64,000 bases of DNA from Pseudaquabacterium pictum (GTDB lineage Bacteria > Pseudomonadota > Gammaproteobacteria > Burkholderiales > Burkholderiaceae_C): assembly GCF_005403045.1 (NCBI RefSeq), contig NZ_BJCL01000007.1:1-64000 (forward strand), given 5' to 3'. Positions within the stretch are counted from its first letter, which is position 1; the number at the start of each line of letters is the position of its first letter. Positions 30,438 to 50,150 of this stretch are shown in pieces. The notes beneath the pieces were generated by a model. The model did no database searches, was not told where the DNA came from, and worked only from the letters and a program-made list of their open reading frames with translations. Position numbers and translations under genes: made by a program.

Positions 30438-31184
30438 TCAGCGTCGCGCCAGCAAAGCCTGGATGCCCATCGACAGCCCCGCATTCGGCTTCACCGGCGG
30501 CAGCGCAAAGCTGCCGGCGCGGGCCTTGGCCGGCGCCAGTGCGGCCAGGGTTTCAGCATGGCGCACGGCGCTGGACAAGCCATCGACCACCGGCACGGGC
30601 AGCAGGTCGCGCACCTGGCGGGCCAGGCCAGCCAGGGGCGCGCCGGCCAGCACGATCACGTCGGCGCCGTCCTCGGCCACGGCGCGCTCGGCCAGGGCCA
30701 CCAGGGCGTCGCGGTGGTCCTGCTGGATGCTGGCAACATCGCGCAGCGGGCTGCCCAGGCTGCGGATGCTGGCCAGCCGGCCCAGCAGGCCATGGGCATC
30801 GACACATTCGCGGTACCACGCGCTGATGCGGGTGGAGATGGCAATGATCGAGAAGCGCTGGCCCAGCAGGCAGGCACTCATCAGCGCGGCTTCCGTCAAG
30901 CCGGTGACCGGCATGGGCAGCACCTCGCGCAGCGCCTGCAGACCGGGGTCGCCAAAGGCCGCGACGATCACCGCGTCATGGCCTGCCGCCTGCTCGGCCG
31001 CCGCCTCGGCGGTGGCATGGGCGCCCAGCATGGCCTCGAAGCGGGTCTCGATGTAGGCCACGCCGAAGCGGGCGGTGGCCATGGTCAGCACGGTGCCGGG
31101 CGACGCGGCGCGGCGCGCCTCGGCTTCGATCAGGTCGGTCACCGACGGGCTGATGTTGGGGTTGATGATGAGCAGGCGTGCCAT
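30438..31184 (-). CDS. Asp/Glu/hydantoin racemase-family protein without catalytic cysteines
   Basis: A 248-residue protein with the N-terminal RLLIINPNISPSVTDLI and the fold pattern of hydantoin racemases. Classical HyuA enzymes use Cys76 (ACFGDPG) and Cys181 (LGCAGM). Here those positions are Ala76 (AAFGDPGL) and Gly181 (LAGAPL), so two-base racemisation by cysteines is not possible. It may be a lyase, decarboxylase or binding protein of the superfamily. It is the last gene of the minus-strand hydantoinase operon, 16 bp after the Bug receptor stop, with AGGGAA before the ATG. A Cys-less paralogue is at 48013-48771. Confidence 0.85.
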   Translation of the reverse strand: MARLLIINPNISPSVTDLIEAEARRAASPGTVLTMATARFGVAYIETRFEAMLGAHATAEAAAEQAAGHDAVIVAAFGDPGLQALREVLPMPVTGLTEAALMSACLLGQRFSIIAISTRISAWYRECVDAHGLLGRLASIRSLGSPLRDVASIQQDHRDALVALAERAVAEDGADVIVLAGAPLAGLARQVRDLLPVPVVDGLSSAVRHAETLAALAPAKARAGSFALPPVKPNAGLSMGIQALLARR

Positions 31185-31200
31185 GGCCGTTCCCTTGTGC

Positions 31201-32169
31201 TCACTCGGCCTTCATGCCGGTGTCCTTCACCAGCCTGGCATAGCGCCGGATCTCGGCGGCCAGGAAGGCCTGCAGCTCGGCCGGCGTGCCCTTGCCGGCC
31301 TCGGCGCCCATGGCGGTGTAGCGCTCCTGCAGATCCGCCGCGCCCAGGCTGCGCGCCACCTGGGCATTCAGCTTGGCCACCACGGGCGCCGGCGTGCCCG
31401 ACGGCGCCAGCAGCAGGAACCAGGCCGCAAAGGCATACCCCGGCACGCCGGCCTCGGCCATGGTGGGCAGGTCGGGCGCCAGCGGCGACCGGGTGGCCGA
31501 ACTGATGGCCAGGGCCCGCAGCTTGCCGGCCTTCACATGCTGGGCCGACGACAGCAGCGGGTCGATCATCAGCTGCACCTGGCCCGCGATCAGATCGGTC
31601 AGTGCCGGTGCCGAGCCCTTGTAGGGCACGTGCAGCATCTGCACCCCGGCCATGCTGGCCAGCAGTGCCGCCGCCACATGGCTGGTGGTGGCGTTGCCCG
31701 ACGAGGCATAGGCCAGCTTGTCGGGCTGCACCTTGGCCAGGGCCAGCAGTTCCTTCAGGTTCTGCGCCGGCACGGCGGGGTTGACCACCAGCACGCTGGG
31801 CACGGTGGCCAGCTTGGCCACCGGCTGCAGGTCTTTCTCGGTGTCGTAGGGCAGCCGGGGGTACAGGCTGGGGTTGACTGCATGGCCCACGGTGACGACC
31901 AGCAGCGTGTGGCCGTCGGCCGGCGCGGTGGCCACGGCCTGGGTGGCGATCTGACCGCCGGCTCCGGGCTTGTTCTCGATGACCGCGGCCTGGCCCCAGG
32001 CCTCACCCAGCTTCTGGCCGATCAGGCGGGCAAAGTTGTCGGCCGCGCCGCCCGGCGGGAAGGGCACGACGATCTTGATCGGCTTGCTGGGGTAGCTGTC
32101 CTGGGCCTGGACGGCTGGGGCCAGCAGCAGGCACAAGGCCAGACCCAGCAGGGCGAACGGGGTTTTCAT
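31201..32169 (-). CDS. Bug-family periplasmic solute-binding receptor
   Basis: A 322-residue orphan TctC-like receptor. The signal peptide spans residues 1-22 (LLGLALCLLLAPAVQA). Mature motifs are IKIVVPFPPGGAADNFAR and LHVPYKGSAPALTDLIAG. AAGGAAG precedes the ATG. It lies between the amidohydrolase (31 bp upstream) and the racemase-like gene in the hydantoinase operon, so it probably binds the heterocycle, or a carboxylate derived from it, that these enzymes break down. No TctA/TctB partner is present. Confidence 0.9.
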   Translation of the reverse strand: MKTPFALLGLALCLLLAPAVQAQDSYPSKPIKIVVPFPPGGAADNFARLIGQKLGEAWGQAAVIENKPGAGGQIATQAVATAPADGHTLLVVTVGHAVNPSLYPRLPYDTEKDLQPVAKLATVPSVLVVNPAVPAQNLKELLALAKVQPDKLAYASSGNATTSHVAAALLASMAGVQMLHVPYKGSAPALTDLIAGQVQLMIDPLLSSAQHVKAGKLRALAISSATRSPLAPDLPTMAEAGVPGYAFAAWFLLLAPSGTPAPVVAKLNAQVARSLGAADLQERYTAMGAEAGKGTPAELQAFLAAEIRRYARLVKDTGMKAE

Positions 32170-32200
32170 GGGGCTTCCTTCGGTGGGGGTTGGCAGGTGG

Positions 32201-33568
32201 TCAGTACGGCTTGCCGACGGCGGCCCAGAGCTGGCGGGCAGCGGCTTCTGCCTCGGCGCAGACGGTGTCCAGGTCGACACGGGTGGGGCGGCCGTCTTCG
32301 ACCACCAGCTCACCGTCCACCAGCACATGGCGCACATCGCGGCCCTGGCCGCAGTGCACCAGCGTGCCCAGCGGATCGGCCTGCGGCACCCAGTGCGGCC
32401 GGCGCGCGTCGAAGACCACCAGGTCGGCGCACTTGCCCACGGTGATCGAGCCGGTCTCGCCGTCCAGCCCCAGCGCGCGGGCGCCGCCCAGCGTGGCCAT
32501 GGCGAACACATGCTGCGGCTGCCAGTCGGCATCGACGCCGCCGGTCTGCACCCGGGCGGTCATCAGGGCCCAGCGTGGCAGCTCCACCATGTCGGCATGC
32601 TGGGTGTCGGTGGCCAGCGCCAGGTTCACGCCGGCGGCCTTCAGCCTGGGCGTGGGCGCCAGCCGGCCCGAGGTGGCATTGCACTTGGGGATGTGGATGA
32701 CGGTGGCCCGGGCGGCGGCCAGCAGGGCGATGTCGCCGTCGCTCAAGTAGATGCCGTGGCCACCCATCAGGCGGTGGTTCAGCAGCCCGCAGTCGGCCAG
32801 CACCTGGGTGGCGGTGCGCCCGCAGCGGGCCTGCACCCGGTCCACCTCGACCCGACTTTGCGACAGGTGGGTGTTGACATGCATGCCCGATGACGCCGAC
32901 AGCGCCGCCACCTGGCGCAGCAGGTCTTCGCTGCAGGTGTCCACCGCATGCGCGGCCAGCTGCGGATGGACGCGCGGGTGGCCGTGCCAGCGCGCATGCA
33001 GGTCGGCCGCGCGGCGCAGCAGGCGCTCGCCGATGGCGGCATCGAAGTGCCAGTCGCCCTGCGCCACGCGGGCGAAGTCGACATCGTGGATGCGCCAGCT
33101 GGGCGCCAGTTTCAGGCCGGTCTCTGCCATGGCCTCGGTGCTGACATCGGCATGCACGAAGTGGTCGCCCAGCACGGTGCTGCCGAACATCAGCGCCTCG
33201 CAGGCGCCCAGCCGGGCCAGCGCACGGGCCTGCTCGGGGTTGACCTGCGTGCCCTGCGGAATGCCGGGGGTGTACGACGGCGCAAAACCCAGATCCGCCG
33301 CCACACCGCGCACCAGGCTCAGGATGGCATGCTGGTGCGGGTTGACGAAGCCGGGCGTGACCACATGCCCCTGCAGCGCCAGCCGGCGGCCGATCCGCGC
33401 CCCCGGCGGCAGCTGCGTGCCGATCCAGGCGATGCGGCCATCCTGCACGGCCAGGCTGGCACCGCGCAGCAGCGGCTGCTGCGCGTCGCCGGTGATCAGC
33501 GTGGCGCCGTCCAGCAGCAGGTCGAATTGAAGGCCGGGGGATGGGCCGGCGGGCGGCGCTGTCGTCAC
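32201..33568 (-). CDS. Metal-dependent amidohydrolase/deaminase (ATZ/TRZ-like)
   Basis: A 455-residue TIM-barrel amidohydrolase. Metal ligands are visible as H78-Q-H80 (GFVNPHQHA), the His of NTHLSQS, the His of GHGIYLSDGD and the Asp of LATDTQHAD. In most ATZ/TRZ deaminases a Glu stands three residues after the second-barrel His; here it is Gln (HLSQ). The GTG start at 33568 overlaps the hydantoinase stop (GTGA). A clear paralogue lies at 45693-47072, with the shared block DLGFAP-x-YTPGIP. It probably removes an amino group or opens a ring of a nitrogen heterocycle; the substrate is unknown. Confidence 0.88.
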   Translation of the reverse strand: MTTAPPAGPSPGLQFDLLLDGATLITGDAQQPLLRGASLAVQDGRIAWIGTQLPPGARIGRRLALQGHVVTPGFVNPHQHAILSLVRGVAADLGFAPSYTPGIPQGTQVNPEQARALARLGACEALMFGSTVLGDHFVHADVSTEAMAETGLKLAPSWRIHDVDFARVAQGDWHFDAAIGERLLRRAADLHARWHGHPRVHPQLAAHAVDTCSEDLLRQVAALSASSGMHVNTHLSQSRVEVDRVQARCGRTATQVLADCGLLNHRLMGGHGIYLSDGDIALLAAARATVIHIPKCNATSGRLAPTPRLKAAGVNLALATDTQHADMVELPRWALMTARVQTGGVDADWQPQHVFAMATLGGARALGLDGETGSITVGKCADLVVFDARRPHWVPQADPLGTLVHCGQGRDVRHVLVDGELVVEDGRPTRVDLDTVCAEAEAAARQLWAAVGKPY

Positions 33569-35022
33569 GCATCCAGCTCCAGCCACTGCCGCCAGCCGCC
33601 GCTGCGGGTGCGCGGCCGCGCCAGCGCCGGGCGGTCGCAGCGCAGGAACTGGCCCTGGCCGGGCGTGCCGGTGAAGTGCTGGCCGTCCCACACCACCTGG
33701 CCGCGCAGCAGGGTCAGGGCCGGCCAGGCCTGCAGCTCACGGCCCTCGTAGGGCGTGTAGTCGACGTTGTGGTGCAGGTGTTCGTTGCGGATGACATGCG
33801 GTTGGCCGGTGTCCCAGATCACCAGGTCGGCATCGCTGCCCACGGCCAGCGTGCCCTTGCGCGGGTACAGGCCGTACAGGTGGGCGGCATTGGTGGCCGT
33901 GAGGGCCACGAACTGCTGGACCGACAGCCGCCCGGTCAGCACGCCTTCGCTGAACAGCAGCGGCATGCGCGTCTCCAGCCCCGGGATGCCGTTGGGGATG
34001 TAGGGAAACGGCGGCTCGCGGCCACCCAGCCGCTTGCCGTTGGGGTCGTCGTAGTTGAACGGCGCATGGTCGGACGACACCACGGTGAACAGGCCGTCGG
34101 CCAGCGCGTCCCACACCACCTGCTGGTTGGCCTTGTCGCGCGGCGGCGGGCTGCAGACGCAGCGTGCACCGCCGAAGCCGGTGGTGGCCAGGTCGTCCTG
34201 CGTCAGGAACAGGTATTGCGGGCAGGTCTCGGCATGGATGTTCAGGCCCTTGCCGCGGGCCCAGCGGATCTGCTCGATCGCCTCGCCGCCCGACACGTGC
34301 ACGATCAGGATGGGCACGTCCAGCAGCTCGGACAGCGTGATGGCGCGGTGGGTGGCCTCGCGCTCCACCGGCGCGGGGCGCGACAGGCCGTGGTAGCCGG
34401 GCGCTGTCTTGCCCGCCGCCAGCAGCCGCTCGGTGAGGAAGGCGATGGCGTCGCTGTTCTCGGCATGGATCATCGCCATGGCCTGCTCGCGCCGGGCCAG
34501 TTCCAGCACCTGCAGGATCTGGCCGTCGGCCAGCTTCAGGTCGTCGTAGGTCATGTACATCTTGAAGGATGTGCAGCCTTCGGCGATGAGCTCCGGCAGC
34601 TCGTGCTGCAGCACCTGCGGCGTGGGGTCGGCCACGATCAGGTGAAAGGCGTAGTCGACGCTGGCCTTGCCGGCGGCACGCTGGTGGTAGTCGGTCACCG
34701 CCGCACGCAAGGAGCCGCCCTTGGCCTGCGCCGCGAACGGGATGATGGTGGTGGTGCCGCCGCAGGCCGCCGAGCGGGTGCCGGTCTCGAAGTCGTCGGC
34801 CATGCGCACCGGCGGCAGCATCGGCTGGTCGACATGGCAGTGCGCATCGATGCCGCCGGGCGTGACGAAGCGGCCGGCGGCGTCGATCTCGCGTGTGGCC
34901 GGCCCGGCCACCAGCGATTGCGCCAGCGCCACGATGCGCCCGCCGGTGATGCCGATGTCGGCATCGAACACGTCGCCGGCGGTGGCCACATGCGCACGGC
35001 GCACGATCAGGTCGAAGCTCAT
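33565..35022 (-). CDS. Dihydropyrimidinase / D-hydantoinase family enzyme
   Basis: A 485-residue cyclic-amide hydrolase. The binuclear metal site is intact: H61-C-H63 (GIDAHCHVD), the carboxylated Lys154 (TSFKMYMTY), His in IHAEN and IVHVSG, and Asp in SSDHAPF. It should open a hydantoin, dihydropyrimidine or related cyclic ureide to a carbamoyl amino acid; the DPNGKRLGG loop is typical of the family. AGGAG precedes the ATG at 35022, which overlaps the upstream gene's stop (ATGA), and its own stop overlaps the amidohydrolase start. No N-carbamoylase is in the operon; the amidase or PuuE-like protein elsewhere in the cluster could take that place. Confidence 0.92.
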   Translation of the reverse strand: MSFDLIVRRAHVATAGDVFDADIGITGGRIVALAQSLVAGPATREIDAAGRFVTPGGIDAHCHVDQPMLPPVRMADDFETGTRSAACGGTTTIIPFAAQAKGGSLRAAVTDYHQRAAGKASVDYAFHLIVADPTPQVLQHELPELIAEGCTSFKMYMTYDDLKLADGQILQVLELARREQAMAMIHAENSDAIAFLTERLLAAGKTAPGYHGLSRPAPVEREATHRAITLSELLDVPILIVHVSGGEAIEQIRWARGKGLNIHAETCPQYLFLTQDDLATTGFGGARCVCSPPPRDKANQQVVWDALADGLFTVVSSDHAPFNYDDPNGKRLGGREPPFPYIPNGIPGLETRMPLLFSEGVLTGRLSVQQFVALTATNAAHLYGLYPRKGTLAVGSDADLVIWDTGQPHVIRNEHLHHNVDYTPYEGRELQAWPALTLLRGQVVWDGQHFTGTPGQGQFLRCDRPALARPRTRSGGWRQWLELDA

Positions 35023-35744
35023 CGGTTCTCCTCGAACAGCCGGCCCCAGCCGCGCACGCGCGCGGTGTCCACGCCGCACAGGCGCAGGCACTGCCAGACG
35101 GCGGTGGCCGTGGTGTCGTACAGCGGGATGCCCAGCTCGGCTTCGAGCTGGGCGGCCAGCTGCGCCGCATGCAGGTTGGTGCAGAAGGTGGTGATGCACT
35201 GCGCGCCGGCCGCGGCCACCTCGTGCGACAGCTGGTGCAGCACGGCGGGGGCCACCTCGGCAAACTCGAAATTGACCGACAGCGACAGGTGCCGCTCGGC
35301 CACGCAGGCATAGCCGCTGGCGGCGTAGTTGTCGACGATGCGCTGCTGCACGTCGGCGGTGTAGGGCGTCACCAGGCCGAAGCGGCGCTGGTCGTTGCGG
35401 GTCATCAGGGTGTTGAGCGCCAGCACGGAGGTGCAGGCGGGGATGCCGGTCTCGCGGGTGATGGCCGCGCACAGTGCCTCGTCACGGTCGAAGCCCAGCC
35501 AGCCGGCGGCCGTGCCGTTCCAGGCGATCACGTCCACCCGGGCATCGGCCAGCAGTTGCGCCGCCTGCAGGATGGGCTGCAGCTCGAACTGGCCCAGGGC
35601 CTGCTGCGCCAGGGAAATCTGGGTGACGCGGAAGCGGGCGAAGTGCACCGACACCTCGGGCAGGCCGGCCAGCATGGCCGCGCACAGCGGCTCCAGCGCG
35701 GTGTTGGACGAGGGCGTCAACATGCCCAGGCGGATGCGCTTCAT
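35019..35744 (-). CDS. Asp/Glu-racemase superfamily protein with arylmalonate-decarboxylase-like active site
   Basis: A 241-residue protein of the maleate isomerase / arylmalonate decarboxylase branch. Maleate isomerases use two cysteines. Here the first position is Gly77 (WNGTAAG) and the second is Cys188 (TTFCTNL). This Gly-plus-single-Cys pattern is that of Bordetella arylmalonate decarboxylase (Gly74, Cys188, as I recall). The ending GWGRLFEEN also resembles that enzyme's GYGRLFDES. The N-terminal LGMLTPSSNT is shared with maleate isomerases. It may decarboxylate a malonate-type intermediate made after ring opening. It is the first gene of the hydantoinase operon, with AAGGAG before the ATG. 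Confidence 0.8.
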   Translation of the reverse strand: MKRIRLGMLTPSSNTALEPLCAAMLAGLPEVSVHFARFRVTQISLAQQALGQFELQPILQAAQLLADARVDVIAWNGTAAGWLGFDRDEALCAAITRETGIPACTSVLALNTLMTRNDQRRFGLVTPYTADVQQRIVDNYAASGYACVAERHLSLSVNFEFAEVAPAVLHQLSHEVAAAGAQCITTFCTNLHAAQLAAQLEAELGIPLYDTTATAVWQCLRLCGVDTARVRGWGRLFEENR

Positions 35745-35788
35745 GCTGCTGTCTCCTTCAGCCTGCGCCAGGCCGGCGCGGCATTTGC

Positions 35789-36553
35789 ATGGACGGCTGG
35801 ACAATCATGGTTCCCTCTGCGCCGCTCCTGCCCCCCTGCCCGATGCCGCCCCGCACCCCTGCTGCAACCCCCACCCTGGATGGCGTGGCCCTGCGCGAAG
35901 CCATCTTCGACCGCATCTGGCGCGCGGTGCTCGAGCACCGCCTGCCGCCCGGCACCAAGCTGGTCGAAGACCGCCTGGCCGAGCTGTTCACCACCAGCCG
36001 CGCCCAGGTGCGCGACGTGCTGGCGCGCCTGGCCAACGAAGGCATCGTCGACATGGTGCCCAACCGCGGCGCCTTCATCGCCAGCCCCACGCCCGAGCAG
36101 ACCCGCGAGGTGTTCGAGGCGCGCCGCCTGCTGGAACCGGCGCTGGTGCGGCGCCTGGTCGCACGGCGCGATGCCGCCGCCATCGCCGCGCTGCGGGCGG
36201 TGGTGGCCGACGAGCAGGCGGCCCGGGGCCGGGCTGACCGGCCCACCATCGTGCGGCTGTCGGGCTGGTTCCACATCGAACTGGCGCGCCTGGCCGGCAA
36301 CCGGCCGCTGGCCCACACCATGCGCGAGCTGGCCACCATGACGGTGCTGGCGATCTTCCTGTACGACGCGCCGCATGCCACCGCCTGCCGCGAGGACGAG
36401 CACGAGCAGCTGCTCAATGCCATCGAGCGCCGGCGCACCGAGCGCGCGGTGGAGCTGATGCTGCATCACCTGGACCACATCGAGGGTTCGCTCAACCTGG
36501 CACCGCGGGCAGATGCACCGATCGACCTGGCTGCGGTGCTGGGCGGGGATTGA
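35789..36553 (+). CDS. GntR-family regulator, FCD (FadR-like) subgroup
   Basis: A regulator of up to 254 residues. The winged helix-turn-helix covers about residues 30-95 (DRIWRAVLEHRLPPGTKLVEDRLAELF, then TSRAQVRDVLARLANEGIV). The FCD ligand domain follows, with His residues in FHIELARLAGN, DEHEQLLNAIERR and HHLDHIEG that would hold a metal and a carboxylate effector. Alternative starts are ATGs at 35807 and 35843, and 35843 gives the most typical N-terminus. It diverges from the hydantoinase operon and is the obvious candidate for control of the surrounding cluster. A GGACAATC half-site overlaps its 5' end. Confidence 0.88.
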   Translation: MDGWTIMVPSAPLLPPCPMPPRTPAATPTLDGVALREAIFDRIWRAVLEHRLPPGTKLVEDRLAELFTTSRAQVRDVLARLANEGIVDMVPNRGAFIASPTPEQTREVFEARRLLEPALVRRLVARRDAAAIAALRAVVADEQAARGRADRPTIVRLSGWFHIELARLAGNRPLAHTMRELATMTVLAIFLYDAPHATACREDEHEQLLNAIERRRTERAVELMLHHLDHIEGSLNLAPRADAPIDLAAVLGGD

Positions 36554-37606
36554 TCAGACCTTCACCTCGCGGTTGAAGCGGTCGATGTACTCGGCGCGGC
36601 GCGGGTTCAGCTTGGCCCAGTCGACACCGTTCATCGCCTCCAGCGCGGCGGTGTTGGCCGCGTAGGCCTGCAGGGCCTTGCTGAAGCTGGCCTTGGAGCT
36701 GGTGGGCGCCACCATGTAGGGCGCATCGGCCATCTGGGTCTGCACCTCGGGGCTGATGGCGGCGTTGATGTAGGCCGCCGCCAGGTCCACGTTCTTCGAG
36801 TTCTTGACGATGTGCATCGAGCTCTTGATGTGGATCCAGCCGGTGTCGGGCTTGGCCAGCGCGATCGGCACGCCCTTGGACTGCAGGTCGCCGACGTTGT
36901 TGTTGTAGTGCACCGAGATGTCGATCTGGCCCTGCTGGAACAGCGTGGCCAGCGAGCCAGGGTTGGACGCAACCGCGCTGACATTGGGCAGCAGCCGCTT
37001 GACGAACTGGAAGGCGGGTTCCATGTTCTCCTCGCTGCCGCCGTTGAGGCGGGCGATCTCGACCATCCAGGCCGACATCAGCGTGCTGCCCATGCCGGCC
37101 AGGCCCACGCGGCCCTTGAACTCGGGCTTGAGCAGATCGTTCCAGTTGCGCGGCGGGGTCTTGATCTTGTCGGTGTTGTAGGCGATGCCGATGATCTGGC
37201 CCGAGCAGAACACGCCCAGGCCACGTGGGTCGATGAACTTGGCCGGGATGTCCTTGAGGTTGGGCACCTTGTCGGTGGGCACCTTCTCGAAGATGTCGTG
37301 CTGCAGGGCGTTGAGGTACGGACCCTCGTCCAGGATGATCACGTCGAACGGCGGGTTGGCCTTGGACGCCACGATCTTGCTGACCGTGTCCACCGCCAGG
37401 CTGGCCACCAGGTTGGTGCTGCCGCCGCTGGCCTTGGCAAAGGCCGGCAGCAGGATCTGCCGGTGGGCGGATTCCCAGGCACCGGGGTAGGTGGTGGCGG
37501 AGATCGTCTTGCCCTGGGCAAGGGCCAGGCCGGGCAGGCCCAGCGCGGCGGCGGCGGCGGCGCCGGTGTGCAGGAACGCGCGGCGCGGCAGGGAACGGAT
37601 GGCCAT
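36554..37606 (-). CDS. ABC transporter substrate-binding protein, spermidine/putrescine (PotD) type
   Basis: A 350-residue periplasmic receptor of the bacterial extracellular solute-binding class. The N-terminus has a twin-arginine-like signal (SLPRRAFLHTGAAAAAALG, cleavage near ALAQG). The mature part contains TYPGAWESAHRQILLPAF, FDVIILDEGPYLNAL and AWMVEIARLNGG. AAAGGA precedes the ATG. Its stop abuts the GntR stop. It is divergent from the ATPase and two permease genes at 37.9-40.7 kb, which together form a complete uptake system. The ligand is probably a positively charged or nitrogen-rich compound, but this is inferred from the family. Confidence 0.88.
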   Translation of the reverse strand: MAIRSLPRRAFLHTGAAAAAALGLPGLALAQGKTISATTYPGAWESAHRQILLPAFAKASGGSTNLVASLAVDTVSKIVASKANPPFDVIILDEGPYLNALQHDIFEKVPTDKVPNLKDIPAKFIDPRGLGVFCSGQIIGIAYNTDKIKTPPRNWNDLLKPEFKGRVGLAGMGSTLMSAWMVEIARLNGGSEENMEPAFQFVKRLLPNVSAVASNPGSLATLFQQGQIDISVHYNNNVGDLQSKGVPIALAKPDTGWIHIKSSMHIVKNSKNVDLAAAYINAAISPEVQTQMADAPYMVAPTSSKASFSKALQAYAANTAALEAMNGVDWAKLNPRRAEYIDRFNREVKV

Positions 37607-37751
37607 GGGAATCCTTTCTGGCGGAGAGATCGAAGGTCAGTCCCAGCCGCAAAGACCATGCCACGGGCGTTGCCGCACACCGCGGGGCGGCGCCGCACCC
37701 ACCCGCACCAAGTTGGCGCCATGTCGCCCCGTTTGTTTGCATCAACGCACT

Positions 37752-37767
37752 GGATTGTCGACAATCC
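37752..37767. promoter_or_regulatory. Perfect 16-bp palindrome, probable GntR/FCD operator
   Basis: GGATTGTCGACAATCC lies in the 259-bp gap between the divergent PotD-like and PotA-like genes. ATTGTC-GACAAT-type palindromes are typical of FCD-subgroup GntR regulators, and such a regulator is encoded about 1.2 kb away. A matching GGACAATC half-site is present at 35799-35806. Confidence 0.6.
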
Positions 37768-37865
37768 GAATCTCTGGTGTGGACGATCCATGGCCTGGTC
37801 AGGTTACAGCCGGCACCGTGCCGGCATGCTTCTTGAATGGCTTTCGGCCTGTGACCCAGCCCGCC

Positions 37866-38974
<1,109 letters not shown>

Positions 38975-38975
<1 letters not shown>

Positions 38976-43668: not shown

Positions 43669-44322
43669 ATGAACTTCGACTGGGCCCTGGTCGGCAAGGC
43701 CGTGCCGCTGCTGGCCACCGGGCTGCTGACCACGGTGAAGATCTGCTCGCTGGCCATGCTGCTGGGCGTGGCGCTGGGCGGCCTGCTGGGCCTGGGCTCG
43801 CTGTCGCGCCTGGCGCCGCTGCGCTGGGCGGTGCGGGCCTATGTCGATTTCATCCGCGGCACGCCGCTCTTGATCCAGATCTTCCTGGTGTACTTCGCGC
43901 TGCCGGTCATCGGCATCAACCTGCCCGAGTTCTGGGCCGGCGTGATCGCGCTGGGGCTGAACGCGGCGGGCTTCATCGCCGAGATCGTGCGCTCGGGCGT
44001 GGGCGCGGTGGAGCGCGGGCAGTCGGAGGCGGCGCGCTCGATCGGCATGACACACGGGCAGATCCTGTGGCACATCCTGCTGCCGCAATCGCTGCGCACC
44101 GTGGTGCCGCCCACCACCAACGAGTTGATCACCCTGGTCAAGGGCTCGGCCCTGCTGTCGGTGATCTCGGTCTACGAACTCACGCGCGCGGGCCAGGCCA
44201 TCATCGCGGTGCACTTCGCGCCCTTCGAGATCTTCCTGCTGATCGCGCTGTACTACTACCTCACCATCTCGACGCTGGCCTGGTTGTCGCGCTGGCTGGA
44301 ACGAAAGCTGCCTGTATGGTGA
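43669..44322 (+). CDS. ABC transporter permease, polar amino acid (HisM/GlnP) type
   Basis: A 217-residue inner-membrane permease. It has the family FIRGTPLLIQIFLVYFALP block and the EAA loop EAARSIGMTHGQILWHILLP. About five helices are expected, and it would act as a homodimer since no second permease gene is present. The end overlaps the ATPase start by 7 bp. It works with the receptor upstream. Confidence 0.92.
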   Translation: MNFDWALVGKAVPLLATGLLTTVKICSLAMLLGVALGGLLGLGSLSRLAPLRWAVRAYVDFIRGTPLLIQIFLVYFALPVIGINLPEFWAGVIALGLNAAGFIAEIVRSGVGAVERGQSEAARSIGMTHGQILWHILLPQSLRTVVPPTTNELITLVKGSALLSVISVYELTRAGQAIIAVHFAPFEIFLLIALYYYLTISTLAWLSRWLERKLPVW

Positions 44323-45086
44323 GCGCCGCCAACACCCCCGTGCTGCAGGTCGATGGCCTGGGCAAGCACTACGGCGGCCGCACCGTGCTGCGCGGTGCGG
44401 CGCTGCAGGTGGCCGAAGGCGAGACGGTGGTGATCATCGGCCCGTCGGGTTCGGGCAAGACCACGCTGCTGCGCTGCCTGAACTGGCTGGAGACACCCGA
44501 CACCGGCCAGGTGCTGCTGCGCGGCGAGCCGATCGGCCGCACCGCCGCCGGCAAGCCCTTGCCCGAGGCCCGGCTGGCCGCGCAGCGCGCCCGCTTCGGC
44601 TTCGTGTTCCAGCGCTTCAACCTGTTTGCCCACCTGTCGGCACTGGACAACGTGGCCATCGGGCCGCAGCGGGTGCTGGGCCTGTCGGCCGCAGACGCGC
44701 GCGAGCGCGCCCGCCAGCAGCTCGACCGGGTGCACCTGGCCAGCCATGTGGACAAGCGGCCCAGCCAGCTGTCGGGCGGGCAGCAGCAGCGGGTGGCCAT
44801 CGCCCGGGCGCTGGCGATGCAGCCCGAGCTGATCCTGTTCGACGAGCCCACGTCGGCGCTCGACCCCGAGCTGGTGACCGAGGTGGTCGACGTGATGGCG
44901 GAACTGGCCGCCGGCGGCATGACCATGGTGGCCGTCACCCACGAGATGCGCTTTGCCCGCAGCGCCGCCGACCGGGTGGTGTTCATCGACGACGGCGCGG
45001 TGGTGGAAGAAGGCCCGCCGGCGCAACTCTTCGACGCGCCGCTGAACGAGCGCACGCGGCGCTTCCTGAGCCACCTGCACGGCTGA
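44316..45086 (+). CDS. ABC transporter ATP-binding protein, polar amino acid (GlnQ) type
   Basis: A 256-residue ATPase. Walker A is GPSGSGKTT with Lys48, the signature is LSGGQQQR, Walker B is LILFDEPTSALD and the switch His is in AVTHEMRFA. There is no TOBE domain, as expected for GlnQ/HisP types. The start is ATG at 44316 or GTG at 44319, both overlapping the permease stop. Its own TGA stop is the first codon of the second 91-bp repeat. It energises the importer encoded just upstream. Confidence 0.92.
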   Translation: MVSAANTPVLQVDGLGKHYGGRTVLRGAALQVAEGETVVIIGPSGSGKTTLLRCLNWLETPDTGQVLLRGEPIGRTAAGKPLPEARLAAQRARFGFVFQRFNLFAHLSALDNVAIGPQRVLGLSAADARERARQQLDRVHLASHVDKRPSQLSGGQQQRVAIARALAMQPELILFDEPTSALDPELVTEVVDVMAELAAGGMTMVAVTHEMRFARSAADRVVFIDDGAVVEEGPPAQLFDAPLNERTRRFLSHLHG

Positions 45087-45174
45087 CATGACCCACCCCC
45101 TACGCGCTTCGCGCGCCCCCTCAAGGGGGCAACGCCAGCGGCCCGGCGAAGCCGGTTCCGCGGCGTTCGCTTGG
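45084..45174. repeat. 91-bp dispersed repeat, copy 2
   Basis: It matches copy 1 at 40674-40764 at 87 of 91 positions, in the same orientation and also starting at the stop codon of a transporter gene. The three hairpins are conserved. Here it lies in the gap before the DUF3830 gene and is not part of a credible gene on the minus strand. It could terminate or attenuate transcription between the importer and the next operon. Confidence 0.85.
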
Positions 45175-45651: not shown

Positions 45652-45692
45652 ACCACCCCCCGCACCCCAGCCCGCCCGCCAGAAAGCACGCC

Positions 45693-47072
45693 ATGACCCT
45701 GCCCCTGCCCCCCAGCGACCCGGCCGACCTGCTGCTGACCGGGCTGACGCTGATCACCGTCGATGCCGGGATGGCGGTCATCCCCGATGCCGCGCTGCTG
45801 GTGCGGCAAGGCCGCATCCAATGGCTGGGCCCGCAGGCCGACCTGCCACCGGGTACCAGCGCCACCCGTACGCTGGCCCTGCCCGGCCGCGTGGCCTGCC
45901 CCGGCTTCGTCAACGTGCACACCCATGCCATCCTCAGCATGGTGCGCGGCGTGGCCGAAGACCTGGGCTTTGCGCCGGCCTACACACCCGGCATCCCGCA
46001 TGGCCATGATGTGACGCCCGACGAGGCCGTGGCCCTGGCCCGGCTGGGCACGGTGGAAGCGCTGCTGTTCGGCTCCACCCTGATCAACGACACCTATGTG
46101 CATGCCGACCTGACCCTGCCGGCCATGGCCGACCTGGGCGGGCGGGTGTTCAGCTGCGGCCGCATCCACGATGCCGACTTCTCGCTGATCGGCGACGGCC
46201 GCTGGGAGCACCACACCGCCATCGGCCAGCGCACCCTGGGCGAGGCCCTGGCCCTGGCCGAGCGCTGGAACGGCGCCTTCGGCGGCCGCACCGGCGTGCA
46301 GCTGTCGGCCCATGCGCCCGACACCTGCAGCGATGCCTTCCTGCGCGAGATCGCCGCCGCATCCCGCGCCCAGGGCCTGCGTGTCAACACCCACCTGGCG
46401 CAGAGCCGCAGCGAGGTGGCGCAGATCCAGCGCCGCAGCGGCTGCACACCGGCGCAGCTGCTCGACGACGTGGGCCTGCTGAACAACCGCCTGATCGCCG
46501 CCCACGGCATCCACATGGACGATGCCGACATCGCCCGCTGCGGCCGCGCCGGCATGTACCTGGCCCATGTGCCCAAGGGCAATGCCACCGGCGGCACCCT
46601 GGCACGCACGTCGGCCTTCCGCCGCGCCGGCGCCAACATCGCGCTCGGCAGCGACAACATGCATGCCGACCTGGTGGAGGTGATGCGCTGGGCCCTGTGC
46701 ATCGGCCGGCTGCAGGAAGGCGCGGTCGACGACTTCTGGCAGCCGGGCGACGTGCTGCGCATGGCCACCATCGACGGTGCGCGGGCCATGGGCCTGGACG
46801 ACCGCATCGGCTCGCTGGAAGTGGGCAAGCAGGCCGACATCGTGGTGTTCGACTTCCGCCGCCCGCACCTGGTGCCCTGCGAGAACCCGCTGGGCAACCT
46901 GGTGCACGTGGCCCAGGGCCGCGATGTGGAGCATGTGTTCGTCGACGGACAGCAGGTGGTGGCCAGCGGCCGGCCGGTGCATGCCGACCTGGACCAGCTG
47001 CTGGCCGACGCCTCGGCCGCCAGCCGGGCGCTGTGGCAGCGGGCCAGGGCATCCACCGGAGCGCCGGCATGA
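45693..47072 (+). CDS. Metal-dependent amidohydrolase/deaminase (ATZ/TRZ-like), paralogue of 32201-33568
   Basis: A 459-residue TIM-barrel enzyme. Metal ligands are H76-T-H78 (GFVNVHTHA), the His of NTHLAQS, the His of AHGIHMDDAD and the Asp of LGSDNMHAD. As in its paralogue, Gln (HLAQ) occupies the position that is usually a catalytic Glu. The two share DLGFAP-A/S-YTPGIP and long stretches elsewhere, so they arose by duplication and may act on related compounds or successive intermediates. The stop overlaps the PuuE-like start (ATGA). The substrate is unknown. Confidence 0.88.
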   Translation: MTLPLPPSDPADLLLTGLTLITVDAGMAVIPDAALLVRQGRIQWLGPQADLPPGTSATRTLALPGRVACPGFVNVHTHAILSMVRGVAEDLGFAPAYTPGIPHGHDVTPDEAVALARLGTVEALLFGSTLINDTYVHADLTLPAMADLGGRVFSCGRIHDADFSLIGDGRWEHHTAIGQRTLGEALALAERWNGAFGGRTGVQLSAHAPDTCSDAFLREIAAASRAQGLRVNTHLAQSRSEVAQIQRRSGCTPAQLLDDVGLLNNRLIAAHGIHMDDADIARCGRAGMYLAHVPKGNATGGTLARTSAFRRAGANIALGSDNMHADLVEVMRWALCIGRLQEGAVDDFWQPGDVLRMATIDGARAMGLDDRIGSLEVGKQADIVVFDFRRPHLVPCENPLGNLVHVAQGRDVEHVFVDGQQVVASGRPVHADLDQLLADASAASRALWQRARASTGAPA

Positions 47073-48016
47073 CGACCGCCCGCACCCGTGACTTCGACGG
47101 CTACCGCGGCCGCTACCCCGCCTTCCGCTGGCCCGGCGATGCCGGCCTGGCGGTCAGCTTCGTGCTGAACGTGGAAGAAGGCGCCGAGCTGTCGCTGACC
47201 GCCGGCGACGAGCGCAATGAGTCGCGCCACGAAGTCAACCACGAGGTGGTGGGCGCGCCCGACCTGTGCATGGAGAGCATGTTCGAGTACGGGGCGCGGG
47301 TGGGCTATGCCCGCATCGCCCAGGTGCTGGTGGATGCCGGCCTGCCGCTCACCCTGAACGCCTGCGCCCGCGCGCTGGAGACCACGCCCTGGATCGCCCA
47401 GGATGCCGCCGACCGCGGCTTCGAGGTGTGCTGCCACGGCTGGCGCTGGGAATCCCACGCCGGCATGGACGAGGCCCGAGAGCGGACGCTGATCGCCCGC
47501 TGCGTGCAGACCATCGCCCGGCTGCACGGCAAGCCGCCGCTGGGCTGGCACACCAAGAGCTCGGCCTCGGTCAACACCCGGCGCCTGCTGGTCGAGCATG
47601 GCGGCTTCCTCTACGACAGCGACGCCTACAACGACGACCTGCCGTACTGGCTGCCGGTGGCCACCAGCGCCGGCCCGCGCCAGCAGCTGGTGCTGCCCTA
47701 TGCCTTCGACACCAACGACATGCGCTTCTTCGACAGCTTTGCCTATGTGCGCGGCAGCGACTTCGCCGACTACGCCATCGCCGCCGTCGATGCCCTGATG
47801 CTGGAAGCGCAGGCATCGCCACGCATGCTGTCGATCGGCCTGCACACCCGCATCATCGGCCGGCCCGGGCGCATCGGCGGGTTGCGCCAGCTGGTGGCCT
47901 ACGTGCAGCAGCAGCGTGGCGCCTGGGTGGCCACGCGCGAGCAGATCGCCCGCCACTTCATGCAGGCGGTGCCGCCGCCGGGCGCAGCGGCCACGCCAGC
48001 CGGGGCAGGCCGGTGA
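47069..48016 (+). CDS. PuuE-like allantoinase / polysaccharide-deacetylase-fold hydrolase
   Basis: A 315-residue NodB-fold protein that resembles the metal-independent allantoinase PuuE. Shared blocks are VSFVLNVEEGAEL, SMFEYGARVGYARI, EVCCHGWRWESH and FLYDSDAYNDDLPYW. PuuE hydrolyses the hydantoin ring of allantoin to allantoate. Here, next to an amidohydrolase, an Asp/Glu-racemase-like protein and an amidase, it could open another hydantoin or cyclic ureide. The ATG overlaps the amidohydrolase stop, and its own stop overlaps the next GTG start. No uricase, HIU hydrolase or OHCU decarboxylase is nearby, so classical urate degradation is not indicated. Confidence 0.85.
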   Translation: MTTARTRDFDGYRGRYPAFRWPGDAGLAVSFVLNVEEGAELSLTAGDERNESRHEVNHEVVGAPDLCMESMFEYGARVGYARIAQVLVDAGLPLTLNACARALETTPWIAQDAADRGFEVCCHGWRWESHAGMDEARERTLIARCVQTIARLHGKPPLGWHTKSSASVNTRRLLVEHGGFLYDSDAYNDDLPYWLPVATSAGPRQQLVLPYAFDTNDMRFFDSFAYVRGSDFADYAIAAVDALMLEAQASPRMLSIGLHTRIIGRPGRIGGLRQLVAYVQQQRGAWVATREQIARHFMQAVPPPGAAATPAGAGR

Positions 48017-48771
48017 AGATCCTGCTGGTCAACCCCAACCTGACCCAGGCCGTGACCGACCGGGTGCTGCAGGCCGCCCAGGCCGCGGCCCGGCCCGGTA
48101 CCGAGCTGCTGGCGGTGACCGGCAGCTTTGGCCCGCAGGTCATCGGATCACGCGCAGAGAACGCACTGGCCGCCCATGGCGTGCTGGACCTGGTGGCACG
48201 GCATGCGCCGGGCTGTGATGCCGTGGTGCTGGCCGTGTCGCTGGACACCGCGCTGTGGGCCTGCCGTGAGCTGCTGGACATCCCCGTGGTGGGCATGACC
48301 GAAGCGGGGCTGTGGACCGCCGCCATGCTGGCGCCGCGCTTTGGCCTGCTGACCTATGGCCAGCGCCTGGTGCCGGTGTACCGGGAACTGGTGGAGGCTG
48401 CCGGGCTGGGCAGCCGGCTGGCCGCCATCGGCGCCGTGGACATGACGCCCGAGCAGACCTTCAGCGAGCCCGATCGCGTGCAGGCGGCCGTGCTGGCCGA
48501 GGCCCAGCGCCTGGTGGACGGCGGTGCCGAGGCGGTGCTGCTGGCCGGCGCCGCGATGGCCGCGATGGCGCCGCTGCTGCAGCCGGCGCTGGCCGTGCCG
48601 CTGCTGGACGGCGTGCGCTGCGCCGTGGGCCTGGCCGAGACCCTGGCGCACCAGGGGTGGATGAAGCCGCGCGTGGGCAGCGTCAGCGCCACCGGCGGGC
48701 GGCAGGCGCACGGCATCAGCCCGGCGCTGGCGGCCCTGATGGCCCGCCCCCACCGCCCGCCGCACGCATGA
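48013..48771 (+). CDS. Asp/Glu/hydantoin racemase-family protein without catalytic cysteines
   Basis: A 252-residue paralogue of the protein at 30438-31184, starting KILLVNPNLTQAVTDRV. The two racemase cysteines are replaced by Val75 (LAVSLDTAL, in place of ACFGDPGL) and Gly179 (LLAGAAM, in place of LGCAGM). It should therefore not be a classical two-cysteine racemase. The GTG start overlaps the PuuE-like stop and its stop overlaps the amidase start, so it is tightly coupled to both. A lyase, isomerase or structural role is possible. Confidence 0.85.
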   Translation: MKILLVNPNLTQAVTDRVLQAAQAAARPGTELLAVTGSFGPQVIGSRAENALAAHGVLDLVARHAPGCDAVVLAVSLDTALWACRELLDIPVVGMTEAGLWTAAMLAPRFGLLTYGQRLVPVYRELVEAAGLGSRLAAIGAVDMTPEQTFSEPDRVQAAVLAEAQRLVDGGAEAVLLAGAAMAAMAPLLQPALAVPLLDGVRCAVGLAETLAHQGWMKPRVGSVSATGGRQAHGISPALAALMARPHRPPHA

Positions 48772-50150
48772 GCTGGCACACCACCACCGCCAGGGCGCTG
48801 GCCGCCCAGGTGCAGGCGCGTACCACCACCGCATTGGCCGTGGCCGAGCACTTCATCGCCCGGGTACAGGCCCACAACCCGGCCCTGAACGCGCTGGTGC
48901 AGTTCCACCCCGACCGGGTGCGCGCCGAGGCGGCAGACGTCGACCAGCGCCTGGCCAGCGGCGCCAGCCTGCCGCTGGCTGGCGTGCCGGTGACGGTGAA
49001 GGACAACGTGTGGGTGGCCGGCTATGCGCAGCAGCAGGGCTCGCGGGTGCACGACGGCTTCGTGGCCCCCCGCGACGCCTGGGTGGTGGCCCGCCTGAAG
49101 TCCCTGGGCGCGGTGGTGCTGGGCATCAGCAATTGCTCCGAGTTCGCCTGCAAGGGCAACACCGTCAATTTGGTCTACGGCGCCACCCGGCACCCGATGG
49201 ATCGGACCCTGACGCCAGGCGGCTCGTCTGGCGGCGCGGCGGCGGCGGTGGCCGCCGGCCTGGGCCTGCTGGCCATCGGGACCGATGCGGGCGGCTCCAC
49301 CCGCAGGCCGGCGGCGCACACCGGCCTGGTCGGCCTGAAGCCCAGCCCCGGGCTGATCCCGCACCCCTGGGGCTTTGCCGAACCCAACTACGGCCTGTCG
49401 GTGATCGGCCTGCTGGGGCGCGATGTGGGCGACGTGGCGTGGTTGTTCGACCGGCTGATCGCGTTCGATGCCGCCGACCCGTCAGCGCCGCCGCTGGCGG
49501 TGGACCTGGGCGTTGGTGAGCTGCAGCCGCCACCGCGCGCCCTGCGCATCGGCTGGAGCCCGCAGCTGGGCTGCGGCTTCGCGGTGGATGCCGATGTGGC
49601 GGCCGCGCTGCAGGCCCGGGTGGATGCCCTGCGCGCCCAGGGCTGGACCATCACCGATGCCGACCCGGCCTGGCCAGACGGCACCCGCGAGTACCCGCTG
49701 ATCAAGCTGCAGCATGCCGGGCTGCATGCGCTGTATGGCCGGCACCTGGACGCCGGCCACCCGCCGATCGACCCGGACCTGGCCGCCCAGATCACCCTGG
49801 GCGCCCAGGTGACCGCGGCCGACGTGGCCACGGCGCTGCGCCTGCGCGAGCGCATCACCAGCGCGCTGGCCACCTATTTCGACCGGTTCGACCTGCTGCT
49901 GACGCCGACTGCCCCGGTCACGGCCTGGCCCGTCGACCAGCTGGGCCCAGCTGTGATCGGGGGGCTGCCGGCCGGGCCGCGCGGCCACGCGGCCTTCACG
50001 CCCCTGTTCAACTATGCGGGGGTGCCCGCCATCTCCGTGCCAGCGGGCATGGTGCGCAACCTGCCCGTCGGCATGCAGGTGGTCGCCCCGCGGTACGAGG
50101 ACGCCAGGGCCATGCGGTTTGCAGCGATGCTGGAGTGCGCGGGCGGATGA
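48768..50150 (+). CDS. Amidase (amidase-signature family)
   Basis: A 460-residue serine hydrolase. The Ser-cisSer-Lys triad is Lys78 (VTVKDNVW), Ser153 (TPGGSSGG) and Ser177 (DAGGSTRRPA), with the usual 24-residue spacing between the two serines. It hydrolyses a linear amide, ureide or carbamoyl compound to an acid and ammonia, and would suit the last step after ring opening in this cluster. The start overlaps the racemase-like stop (ATGA). Related enzymes include allophanate hydrolase and the GatA subunit, but the length and context fit a catabolic amidase. Confidence 0.9.
   Translation: MSWHTTTARALAAQVQARTTTALAVAEHFIARVQAHNPALNALVQFHPDRVRAEAADVDQRLASGASLPLAGVPVTVKDNVWVAGYAQQQGSRVHDGFVAPRDAWVVARLKSLGAVVLGISNCSEFACKGNTVNLVYGATRHPMDRTLTPGGSSGGAAAAVAAGLGLLAIGTDAGGSTRRPAAHTGLVGLKPSPGLIPHPWGFAEPNYGLSVIGLLGRDVGDVAWLFDRLIAFDAADPSAPPLAVDLGVGELQPPPRALRIGWSPQLGCGFAVDADVAAALQARVDALRAQGWTITDADPAWPDGTREYPLIKLQHAGLHALYGRHLDAGHPPIDPDLAAQITLGAQVTAADVATALRLRERITSALATYFDRFDLLLTPTAPVTAWPVDQLGPAVIGGLPAGPRGHAAFTPLFNYAGVPAISVPAGMVRNLPVGMQVVAPRYEDARAMRFAAMLECAGG

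What the first reader, a model, noticed from the sequence alone, without database searches (positions are those of the whole stretch)
30438..50150. A large cluster that looks like an undescribed nitrogen-heterocycle degradation pathway
Within 20 kb there are a hydantoinase, three ATZ/TRZ-type amidohydrolases, a CDA-fold deaminase, a PuuE-like allantoinase, an amidase, DUF3830 and three Asp/Glu-racemase-superfamily proteins. Three importers (Bug, PotABCD-like, GlnQ-like) and a GntR/FCD regulator go with them. Genes are coupled by ATGA/GTGA overlaps in both halves. Known purine routes need uricase or HIU hydrolase, and known reductive pyrimidine routes need dihydropyrimidine dehydrogenase; neither is present. 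A deamination, ring-opening, decarboxylation and amide-hydrolysis sequence on an amino-heterocycle would use all the enzymes.
Basis: partly seen in the sequence, partly recalled or inferred. Interest (0 to 1): 0.75.

Follow-up and report, generated by a model that had tools for sequence, protein, structure and literature searches.

The report
Two-armed cluster for breaking nitrogen rings
A bacterium carries twenty neighbouring genes that look like an undescribed route for importing and cutting open a nitrogen-containing ring compound, with two matching sets of enzymes and a likely shared control site; the compound itself is still unknown.

Summary
In detail: 20 genes at 30438-50150, every named family present, with 4-base ATGA/GTGA overlaps. 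The genes recur as a modular set. Ten of 80 relatives fetched around the AMDase-like gene also carry right-half genes, four of these with the hydantoinase too; related versions occur in Azospirillum, Rhizobium and Salipiger. A rare palindrome, ATTGTNNACAAT, has two places in the 6.1-Mb genome; one is the cluster's central divergent promoter. It recurs at matching promoters of relatives.

This is not canonical pyrimidine or purine breakdown; genes of both lie elsewhere in the genome. Several labels need correcting. Two 'racemases' lack both catalytic cysteines (42/42 and 17/17), and the 'allantoinase' is a separate clade. Two amidohydrolases carry HxxQ instead of HxxE. The third racemase-like protein keeps much of the arylmalonate decarboxylase catalytic site but not its hydrophobic pocket.

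Best reading: a two-armed regulon for a hydantoin- or imide-type ring: import, deamination, ring opening by hydantoinase or PuuE paralog, decarboxylation, amide cleavage. The substrate is unproven. New variant of a known kind.

The parts
30438..31184 (-). AspGluRac1: allantoin/hydantoin-racemase-fold protein without the two catalytic cysteines
   Evidence: PF01177 145 bits; nearest solved chain 5lfd allantoin racemase; Ala and Gly at the two Cys columns in 42 of 42 distinct sequences
31201..32169 (-). TctC/Bug solute receptor
   Evidence: PF03401 239 bits
32201..33568 (-). AH_A: ATZ/TRZ-type amidohydrolase, HxxQ variant
   Evidence: PF01979; 54% identical to AH_C; H234 and Q237 invariant in 7 rows, 6 distinct; GTGA overlap with Hyd
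33565..35022 (-). Hyd: D-hydantoinase/dihydropyrimidinase family, metal ligands intact
   Evidence: NCBIfam PRK13404 and TIGR02033 above cut-off; H61, H63, K154, H186, H242, D318 conserved
35019..35744 (-). AMDase-like single-cysteine protein, candidate decarboxylase
   Evidence: PF17645 69 bits; G74/T75/Y126/C188 equivalents in 92/91/92/91 of 92 distinct sequences, but N at V156, F at M159, T at G189 in 92 of 92
35885..36553 (+). GntR/FCD regulator
   Evidence: PF00392 and PF07729; homologues beside AMDase-like/Hyd genes in some relatives
36554..37606 (-). SBP6: solute-binding protein of the PotABC-like importer
   Evidence: PF13343/PF13416
37752..37767 (.). palindrome GGATTGTCGACAATCC, candidate operator in the SBP6|PotA divergent promoter
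   Evidence: ATTGTNNACAAT at only two places in the genome; enriched at matching promoters of relatives
37887..38975 (+). PotA-like ATPase
   Evidence: PF00005 plus TOBE_2
38972..39835 (+). PotB-like permease
   Evidence: PF00528
39828..40676 (+). PotC-like permease
   Evidence: PF00528
40711..41235 (-). CDA-fold deaminase
   Evidence: PF00383 85 bits; HAE and PCxxC; next to AH_B in relatives
41253..42752 (+). AH_B: ATZ/TRZ-type amidohydrolase with the deaminase-type HxxE
   Evidence: PF01979; H241 and E244 invariant in 27 rows, 21 distinct
42801..43649 (+). SBP3 amino-acid-type solute-binding protein
   Evidence: PF00497
43669..44322 (+). amino-acid-type ABC permease
   Evidence: PF00528; TIGR01726 104.9 bits against cut-off 42.2
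44316..45086 (+). GlnQ-type ATPase
   Evidence: PF00005
45220..45651 (+). DUF3830 protein
   Evidence: PF12903 106 bits; in loci with AMDase-like genes in Caballeronia/Paraburkholderia-type relatives and in Rhizobium pRL10
45693..47072 (+). AH_C: ATZ/TRZ-type amidohydrolase, HxxQ variant
   Evidence: PF01979; Q237 in 3 of 3 sequences; 54% identical to AH_A
47069..48016 (+). PuuE-like ring-opening hydrolase; caller start 47033, likely start ATG 47069
   Evidence: TIGR03212 293.8 bits, below cut-off 424.6; own clade, 23 of 56 distinct sequences, support 0.996
48013..48771 (+). AspGluRac2: allantoin/hydantoin-racemase-fold protein without the two catalytic cysteines
   Evidence: PF01177 151 bits; Val/Ile and Gly at the Cys columns in 17 of 17 sequences
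48768..50150 (+). amidase-signature amidase, Lys/Ser motif intact
   Evidence: PF01425 307 bits; K78, GGSSGG, GGST

Best explanation
A regulated uptake-and-breakdown cluster for an N-heterocycle of the hydantoin/cyclic-imide type. Two importers and a receptor bring in the compound or its relatives. AH_B and, where present, the CDA protein remove an exocyclic nitrogen from the ring (inferred from the intact deaminase motifs). The ring, now a cyclic ureide or imide, is opened by one of two alternative enzymes: the D-hydantoinase in the left arm or the PuuE paralog in the right arm (inferred from family and conserved motifs). Each arm pairs its ring-opener with one HxxQ amidohydrolase (AH_A or AH_C, 54% identical) and one racemase-fold protein without the catalytic cysteines (39% identical), so the arms look like parallel lines for related or enantiomeric substrates. 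The AMDase-like enzyme then decarboxylates a malonate-type acid by its single Cys188 (inferred from residues), and the amidase releases the last nitrogen. A GntR/FCD regulator binding the palindrome at 37752-37767 controls at least the importer promoters (inferred). Shown here: the gene set, its recurrence, the motifs and the enrichment of the palindrome. Not shown: any activity, the substrate, the order of steps.
For: Co-conservation: among the best 80 of 430 relatives confirmed with the AMDase-like alignment, Hyd lies in 62 of 80 loci and adjacent in 57 of 80; 10 of 80 also carry at least two right-half genes, from five named genera plus one uncultured bacterium, and 4 of these 10 carry Hyd as well. 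G422, another family of the order, holds homologues of 11 of the 20 genes within 14 kb: AMDase-like, GntR, Hyd, amidase, PuuE-like, AH_B, PotA, PotB, PotC, SBP6 and AspGluRac2. Alphaproteobacterial versions: Azospirillum ABC importer-AH_A-AMDase-like-Hyd-amidase in a row; Rhizobium pRL10 SBP3-permease-GlnQ-RidA-AH_B-AMDase-like-amidohydrolase-GntR-DUF3830; Salipiger SBP6-PotABC-PuuE-like-amidase-racemase fold, then Hyd-AMDase-like. Palindrome: ATTGTNNACAAT at two places in 6.14 Mb, one in this cluster; TTGTNNACAA 13 times in 22,661 bases of GntR/SBP6/AMDase-like promoters against 4 in 221,953 bases of other promoters. Ring type: Hyd is closest to solved D-hydantoinases, PuuE-like to PuuE allantoinase, both racemase-fold proteins to allantoin racemase. 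Precedent for a PuuE-superfamily ring opener followed by an amidase: HxnM/HxnN in fungal nicotinate breakdown (PMC9304392, passages).
Against: Both arms also occur apart, so they need not serve one substrate. G006 has neither CDA nor AspGluRac2 between the flanking genes. In the evenly drawn order sample only 2 genomes other than the window's hold both AMDase-like (12) and AH_B (9) of 398, expected 0.27, p 0.027: weak on its own. The palindrome is found in this window only at SBP6|PotA; the AMDase-like|GntR promoter has none, and the one one-mismatch core match lies inside the AMDase-like gene. The promoter classes were chosen after seeing the hits, related loci are not independent, and one of the 13 hits (L071) is the near-identical site of the close relative. 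AMDase-like and PuuE-like have family-wide changes at conserved or pocket positions, so their chemistry could differ from the named relatives. The racemase-fold proteins have other common but not invariant cysteines (at best 34 of 42 and 15 of 17), so a different cysteine chemistry is not excluded.
Confidence: 0.5

Rival explanations
1. Two unrelated catabolic modules that merely lie side by side: a hydantoinase/AMDase-like operon on the left and an importer/AH_B/PuuE-like/amidase module on the right, each with its own substrate.
For: Each module occurs without the other in the loci seen: Cupriavidus, Ralstonia, Pandoraea and Burkholderia loci mostly show a GntR-MFS-AMDase-like-Hyd operon only; Comamonadaceae OTU4NAUVB1 has SBP6-PotABC-CDA-AH_B-PuuE-like without the left arm in the 29-kb stretch.
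Against: The AMDase-like gene stands with right-half genes in 10 of 80 loci and in G422; in Pseudacidovorax it sits inside the right-hand set; the same palindrome type marks promoters of both modules in relatives.
Confidence: 0.22
2. A side branch of purine/ureide breakdown: AH_B and CDA deaminate a modified purine, and the PuuE-like, racemase-fold and amidase proteins act on an allantoin derivative.
For: In genus g28 (family f13) the amidase-PuuE-like-AspGluRac2-TctCBA block lies beside OHCU decarboxylase, HIU hydrolase, a canonical-type PuuE and an M20 hydrolase, in varying completeness (Pfam run on representatives from L062-L064 only); in some of these loci an AH_B relative, once or twice with a weak FAD-binding match (22.5 bits, cut-off 22), is next to it.
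Against: All those cases are one genus. No uricase, HIU hydrolase or OHCU decarboxylase match among the 20 window genes. The PuuE-like clade differs from the other PuuE sequences at seven positions conserved in both groups.
Confidence: 0.13
3. A six-membered cyclic-imide pathway like the fungal HxnM/HxnN steps: the ring is a piperidine-dione, opened to a half-amide and then deamidated.
For: Same superfamily pairing of a PuuE/HpPgdA-type opener and an amidase; PuuE-like and amidase lie in one coupled operon and are directly adjacent in G006.
Against: PuuE-like is far closer to PuuE allantoinase (3cl6, 255 bits) than to HpPgdA on the imidase side (3qbu, 46 bits). Hydantoinase and hydantoin-racemase-fold proteins would then need another explanation.
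Confidence: 0.1

Closest known systems
hyu hydantoin-utilisation operons
   Same: D-hydantoinase in a cluster with a hydantoin-racemase-fold gene
   Different: No M20 or CN-hydrolase match, so no known carbamoylase type, among the 20 proteins; both racemase-fold proteins lack the cysteines; extra AMDase-like, PuuE-like and ATZ-type genes. hyu layout from PMC3546935, passages
Reductive pyrimidine pathway PreTA-HydA-carbamoylase
   Same: A dihydropyrimidinase-family enzyme
   Different: The genome has this set at C7 about 279-285 kb (PreA 705 bits against cut-off 335); the window Hyd is a 36-37% identical paralog in another context
PuuE allantoinase purine pathway
   Same: A PuuE-superfamily protein and an allantoin-racemase-fold protein
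   Different: Canonical PuuE (475.7 bits) and HIU hydrolase are on contig C8; the window protein belongs to a separate clade
Arylmalonate decarboxylase (AMDase)
   Same: Gly74, Thr75, Tyr126 and Cys188 equivalents; no Cys at position 74
   Different: Asn and Phe in the hydrophobic pocket, Thr at Gly189, neither signature motif; criteria from PMC4996985, abstract and passages
Fungal nicotinate steps HxnM and HxnN
   Same: PuuE-superfamily cyclic imide hydrolase followed by an amidase
   Different: Works on a six-membered imide, with no hydantoinase or AMDase-like enzyme in the passages seen (PMC9304392)
Gut-bacterial purine cluster (SsnA, HyuA and others)
   Same: ATZ-type amidohydrolase with a hydantoinase-type enzyme
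   Different: Recalled only, from no call and not tested; other partner genes

Membership tests
hyu hydantoin-utilisation operon | D- or L-hydantoinase | tested here: met
   TIGR02033 538 bits, above cut-off
hyu hydantoin-utilisation operon | N-carbamoyl-amino-acid hydrolase in the cluster | tested here: not met
   No M20 or CN-hydrolase Pfam match in the 20 proteins
hyu hydantoin-utilisation operon | two-cysteine hydantoin racemase | tested here: not met
   Both cysteine columns lost in 42/42 and 17/17 distinct sequences
Reductive pyrimidine pathway | dihydropyrimidine dehydrogenase beside the dihydropyrimidinase | tested here: not met
   None among the 20; PreA lies about 245 kb away on the same contig
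PuuE allantoinase | TIGR03212 above its cut-off | tested here: not met
   293.8 against 424.6 bits; genomic paralog on C8 passes with 475.7
PuuE allantoinase | placement among canonical sequences in a tree | tested here: not met
   23 window-like distinct sequences of 56 form one clade, support 0.996 (33 of 67 rows and 0.993 before duplicates were dropped)
Allantoin/hydantoin racemase | catalytic Cys79 and Cys184 (KpAllR numbering) | tested here: not met
   in OpaE the C90S mutant kept 4.8% and C199S at most 0.3% (PMC12661438, passages). In the reference chain 5lfd the first column reads Gly in my alignment, so one named allantoin racemase entry may differ there too
Arylmalonate decarboxylase | Gly74 and Cys188 | tested here: met
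   92 and 91 of 92 distinct sequences
Arylmalonate decarboxylase | dioxyanion hole T75, S76, Y126, G189 | tested here: inconclusive
   T 91/92, S 85/92 (window has A79), Y 92/92, but T instead of G189 in 92/92
Arylmalonate decarboxylase | hydrophobic pocket V156, M159 and motifs LMGTSLSF, ILLSCGGL | tested here: not met
   N and F in 92/92; window reads WNGTAAG and ITTFCTNL
Arylmalonate decarboxylase | P14/P15, L40, V43, Y48 | not tested
   the reference fragment used starts at residue 54
ATZ/TRZ deaminase (AH_B) | HxxE after the HxH motif (role of Glu recalled) | tested here: met
   H241, E244 invariant in 27 rows, 21 distinct
ATZ/TRZ deaminase (AH_A, AH_C) | HxxE | tested here: not met
   Q237 in 7/7 rows (6 distinct) and 3/3; E in 4f0r at the place aligned with AH_C
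All families above | enzyme activity on the named substrate | not testable with these tools
   needs purified protein

The most novel reading that the evidence does not exclude
The cluster breaks down a carboxylated or carboxamidated iminohydantoin, such as those formed when guanine is oxidised: AH_B/CDA turn the imino group into an oxo group, a hydantoinase or PuuE paralog opens the ring, the single-cysteine enzyme decarboxylates the aminomalonate-like product and the amidase frees the last nitrogen. The racemase-fold proteins without catalytic cysteines would be a new enzyme class acting on the hydantoin ring. Nothing here excludes this; nothing tests it directly. The chemistry of oxidised guanine is recalled, from no call.
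Probability: 0.05. Interest if true: 0.85.

Novelty: new variant of a known kind. Interest (0 to 1): 0.55.

Why it matters
The gene set links little-known families (DUF3830, AMDase-like single-cysteine proteins, racemase-fold proteins without the catalytic cysteines, HxxQ amidohydrolases and a PuuE side clade) to one likely chemistry, and so gives each a testable substrate class. [quoted passage not shown] the association of a sister family with hydantoinases offers a lead. A predicted operator makes the inducing compound findable with a simple reporter screen.

Tried and rejected
Rejected: canonical reductive pyrimidine route (PreA-HydA-carbamoylase set lies elsewhere); canonical purine route (PuuE and HIU hydrolase elsewhere; uricase PF01014 has 0 matches in the genome; FAD-type urate hydroxylases were not searched for); ordinary hyu operon (no carbamoylase match); ordinary two-thiol racemases (lost cysteines).

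Led nowhere: transcriptome hints for the Rhizobium pRL10 version (one paper, five passages, no relevant gene seen). A search for 12-base words shared with at most one mismatch between five promoter regions gave one hit, not at the palindrome. A sigma-70 promoter scan of 35700-37950 found none. The ten paper searches listed no description of this gene set; I saw listings, and passages or abstracts of five papers; DUF3830 occurs in 0 held papers. Two structure jobs, DUF3830 and AspGluRac1, had not finished at the last polls; no structural result is used.

In one search intergenic regions under about 40 or over about 1500 bases were dropped, as were regions without a promoter side. Alignments kept only homologues above the identity limits in the scripts. 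The first counts held duplicates (L051 and L071 are one contig; L022-L031 repeat genes of later loci); one search dropped rows sharing their middle 80 residues, and its counts are used. Window-like and other PuuE groups were first split by identity to the window protein, then confirmed by the tree. My gene caller missed or merged some genes in relatives, for example PotA and SBP6 in L074.


Full report
WHAT IS THERE. The window lies on contig C7 of a 6.14-Mb genome in 64 contigs. A relative with a 95% identical AMDase-like protein is titled Aquabacterium sp. in the public record, order Burkholderiales; the window's own record may be left out of such listings. A codon-bias gene caller gives 57 genes in the window and 20 in the finding's range. 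From the left: AspGluRac1, TctC, AH_A, Hyd and the AMDase-like gene read leftwards, AMDase-like/Hyd/AH_A with ATGA and GTGA overlaps; GntR/FCD reads right; SBP6 reads left, divergent from PotABC; CDA reads left, divergent from AH_B; then SBP3-permease-GlnQ; then DUF3830, AH_C, PuuE-like, AspGluRac2 and amidase, the last four joined by ATGA, GTGA and ATGA overlaps if PuuE-like starts at 47069.

SYMMETRY OF THE ARMS. AH_A and AH_C are 54.0% identical, AspGluRac1 and AspGluRac2 38.8%. So each arm holds an HxxQ amidohydrolase, a racemase-fold protein without the catalytic cysteines and a ring-opener (Hyd or PuuE-like); the left adds the AMDase-like gene, the right the amidase. This looks like two parallel lines rather than one chain (inference).

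CO-CONSERVATION. Around the AMDase-like protein, 430 relatives were confirmed in genome contigs and the best 80 kept. Hyd is in 62 of 80 loci and next to it, same strand and within 1 kb, in 57 of 80; AspGluRac1 is in 36 of 80. Ten of 80 also carry at least two right-half genes: Aquabacterium L071, Pseudorhodoferax L072, Variovorax L074, an uncultured bacterium L075, five Pseudacidovorax L076-L080 and Caballeronia L100; of these L071, L072, L074 and L100 also carry Hyd. In the Pseudacidovorax loci Hyd and AH_A are not found within the flanks while AMDase-like, SBP6, PotABC, AH_B, CDA and PuuE-like are present, so Hyd and PuuE-like look like alternatives; their whole genomes were not searched. 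An MFS-family gene is in 57 of the 80 loci, a second GntR family in 53, a beta-lactamase-fold hydrolase in 32, an FAH-family hydrolase in 21 and an M20 hydrolase in 21, and the common layout is GntR-MFS-AMDase-like-Hyd. In 399 Burkholderiales genomes drawn evenly the AMDase-like protein is in 13 and AH_B in 10, own genome counted in both; both are in 2 besides the own genome, expected 0.27, p 0.027. G422 holds homologues of 11 of the 20 genes in 14 kb. G006, same genus and 97% identical in Hyd, has no CDA between PotC and AH_B and no AspGluRac2 between PuuE-like and amidase, so those two are not always needed; it is a MAG 88% complete. Alphaproteobacterial plasmids show further versions.

REGULATION. 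Between SBP6 and PotA lies a perfect 16-base palindrome, GGATTGTCGACAATCC. Its core ATTGTNNACAAT occurs at two places in the genome. In 116 related loci (2,235,446 bases) TTGTNNACAA occurs 20 times, 18 of them between called genes. It is found 13 times in 114 promoter regions of GntR, SBP6 or AMDase-like genes (22,661 bases) and 4 times in 830 other promoter regions (221,953 bases), a 32-fold difference, Fisher p 6e-11; 200 Markov-resampled versions of the first set had mean 0.24 and maximum 2. The classes were set after one search was seen and loci are related, so the p-value is only indicative. Examples cover both arms: GntR|AMDase-like in L100, Hyd|GntR in L123 and L150, GntR|SBP6 in L159, SBP6|PotA in L157. 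In the window the AMDase-like|GntR promoter has no such site, which is against a simple one-operator model.

WHAT THE PROTEINS ARE NOT. The genome holds PreA, a dihydropyrimidinase and a hydantoinase/carbamoylase-family hydrolase, each above a curated cut-off, with a GltD/PreT-type oxidoreductase (below cut-offs) in front, about 215 kb beyond the window's end on the same contig (PreA 705 bits against 335). Canonical PuuE (475.7 bits) and HIU hydrolase lie on contig C8; uricase PF01014 has no match. The window's PuuE-like protein scores 293.8 against 424.6 and falls in a clade of 23 distinct sequences out of 56, support 0.996. Seven positions separate the groups, among them His173 for Tyr and Ser176 for Arg. 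AspGluRac1 and AspGluRac2 lack both catalytic cysteines in 42 of 42 and 17 of 17 distinct sequences; other cysteines are common but not invariant (at best 34 of 42, at window C105, and 15 of 17, at C203). In the related enzyme OpaE the two cysteine mutants kept 4.8% and at most 0.3% of activity (PMC12661438, passages). The AMDase-like family keeps Gly74, Thr75, Tyr126 and Cys188 (92, 91, 92 and 91 of 92 distinct) but has Asn, Phe and Thr at V156, M159 and G189 in 92 of 92; by the published criteria (PMC4996985, passages) it is not an AMDase, though it may work like one. AH_A and AH_C have HxxQ where AH_B and the solved relative 4f0r have HxxE.

MECHANISM. Three families point to a hydantoin-type ring: the hydantoinase, the allantoinase paralog and the allantoin-racemase-fold proteins. 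AH_B and CDA suggest a preceding deamination, the AMDase-like enzyme a decarboxylation of a malonate-type acid, the amidase a last hydrolysis. A ring-opener of PuuE/HpPgdA type followed by an amidase is known from fungal nicotinate breakdown (HxnM, HxnN; PMC9304392, passages). Order and substrate are inference.

AGAINST AND OPEN. The arms also occur apart. In one genus the PuuE-like/amidase block sits beside ureide genes, which keeps a purine-derivative reading alive. The transporter type changes between relatives (PotABC-like, NMT1-type, TRAP, MFS, amino-acid type), so transport does not fix the substrate. Structure predictions did not finish.

VERDICT. A genuine, modular catabolic gene set, not described in the papers my searches listed, made of known enzyme families with several altered members. 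Novel as a pathway, not as a kind of system.

Noticed in passing
window 40677-40760 and 45087-45170: A direct repeat of at least 84 bases (80 of 84 identical) follows PotC and GlnQ and brackets the CDA-AH_B-importer block; the end of the CDA gene lies in it. A 24-base core occurs at three places in the genome; a 20-base core is not found in the relative's L051, L052 or L071.
   Followed up: partly
G000 contig C3:55147-55158: The only other ATTGTNNACAAT site in the genome; its neighbours were not looked at.
   Followed up: no
L081-L150: A widespread Burkholderiales layout GntR-MFS-(beta-lactamase-fold hydrolase)-AMDase-like-Hyd with AspGluRac1, FAH-family or M20 partners.
   Followed up: partly
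L154 (Klebsiella michiganensis plasmid): GntR, ABC importer, dehydrogenase-type genes, AMDase-like, hydA and FAH-family hydrolase on a plasmid typed as mobilizable.
   Followed up: no
L152 (Caballeronia pNK83): AMDase-like gene with UbiD/UbiX, an NCS2-type permease and amidohydrolases: another context for the same family.
   Followed up: no
L059, L062-L064, L192: Amidase, PuuE-like, AspGluRac2, TctCBA and a VOC-fold protein, in varying completeness, near ureide-pathway genes in genus g28.
   Followed up: partly
window 18670-30295: TctC receptors, CoA-transferase III, two acyl-CoA dehydrogenase-family proteins, enoyl-CoA hydratase, SDR, sulfate permease and AMP-binding enzyme: a CoA-linked catabolic cluster.
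   Followed up: no
window 57440-63722: Two AstA-type arginine succinyltransferase genes, amino-acid importer genes and an AstE/AspA-type gene: arginine succinyltransferase pathway.
   Followed up: no
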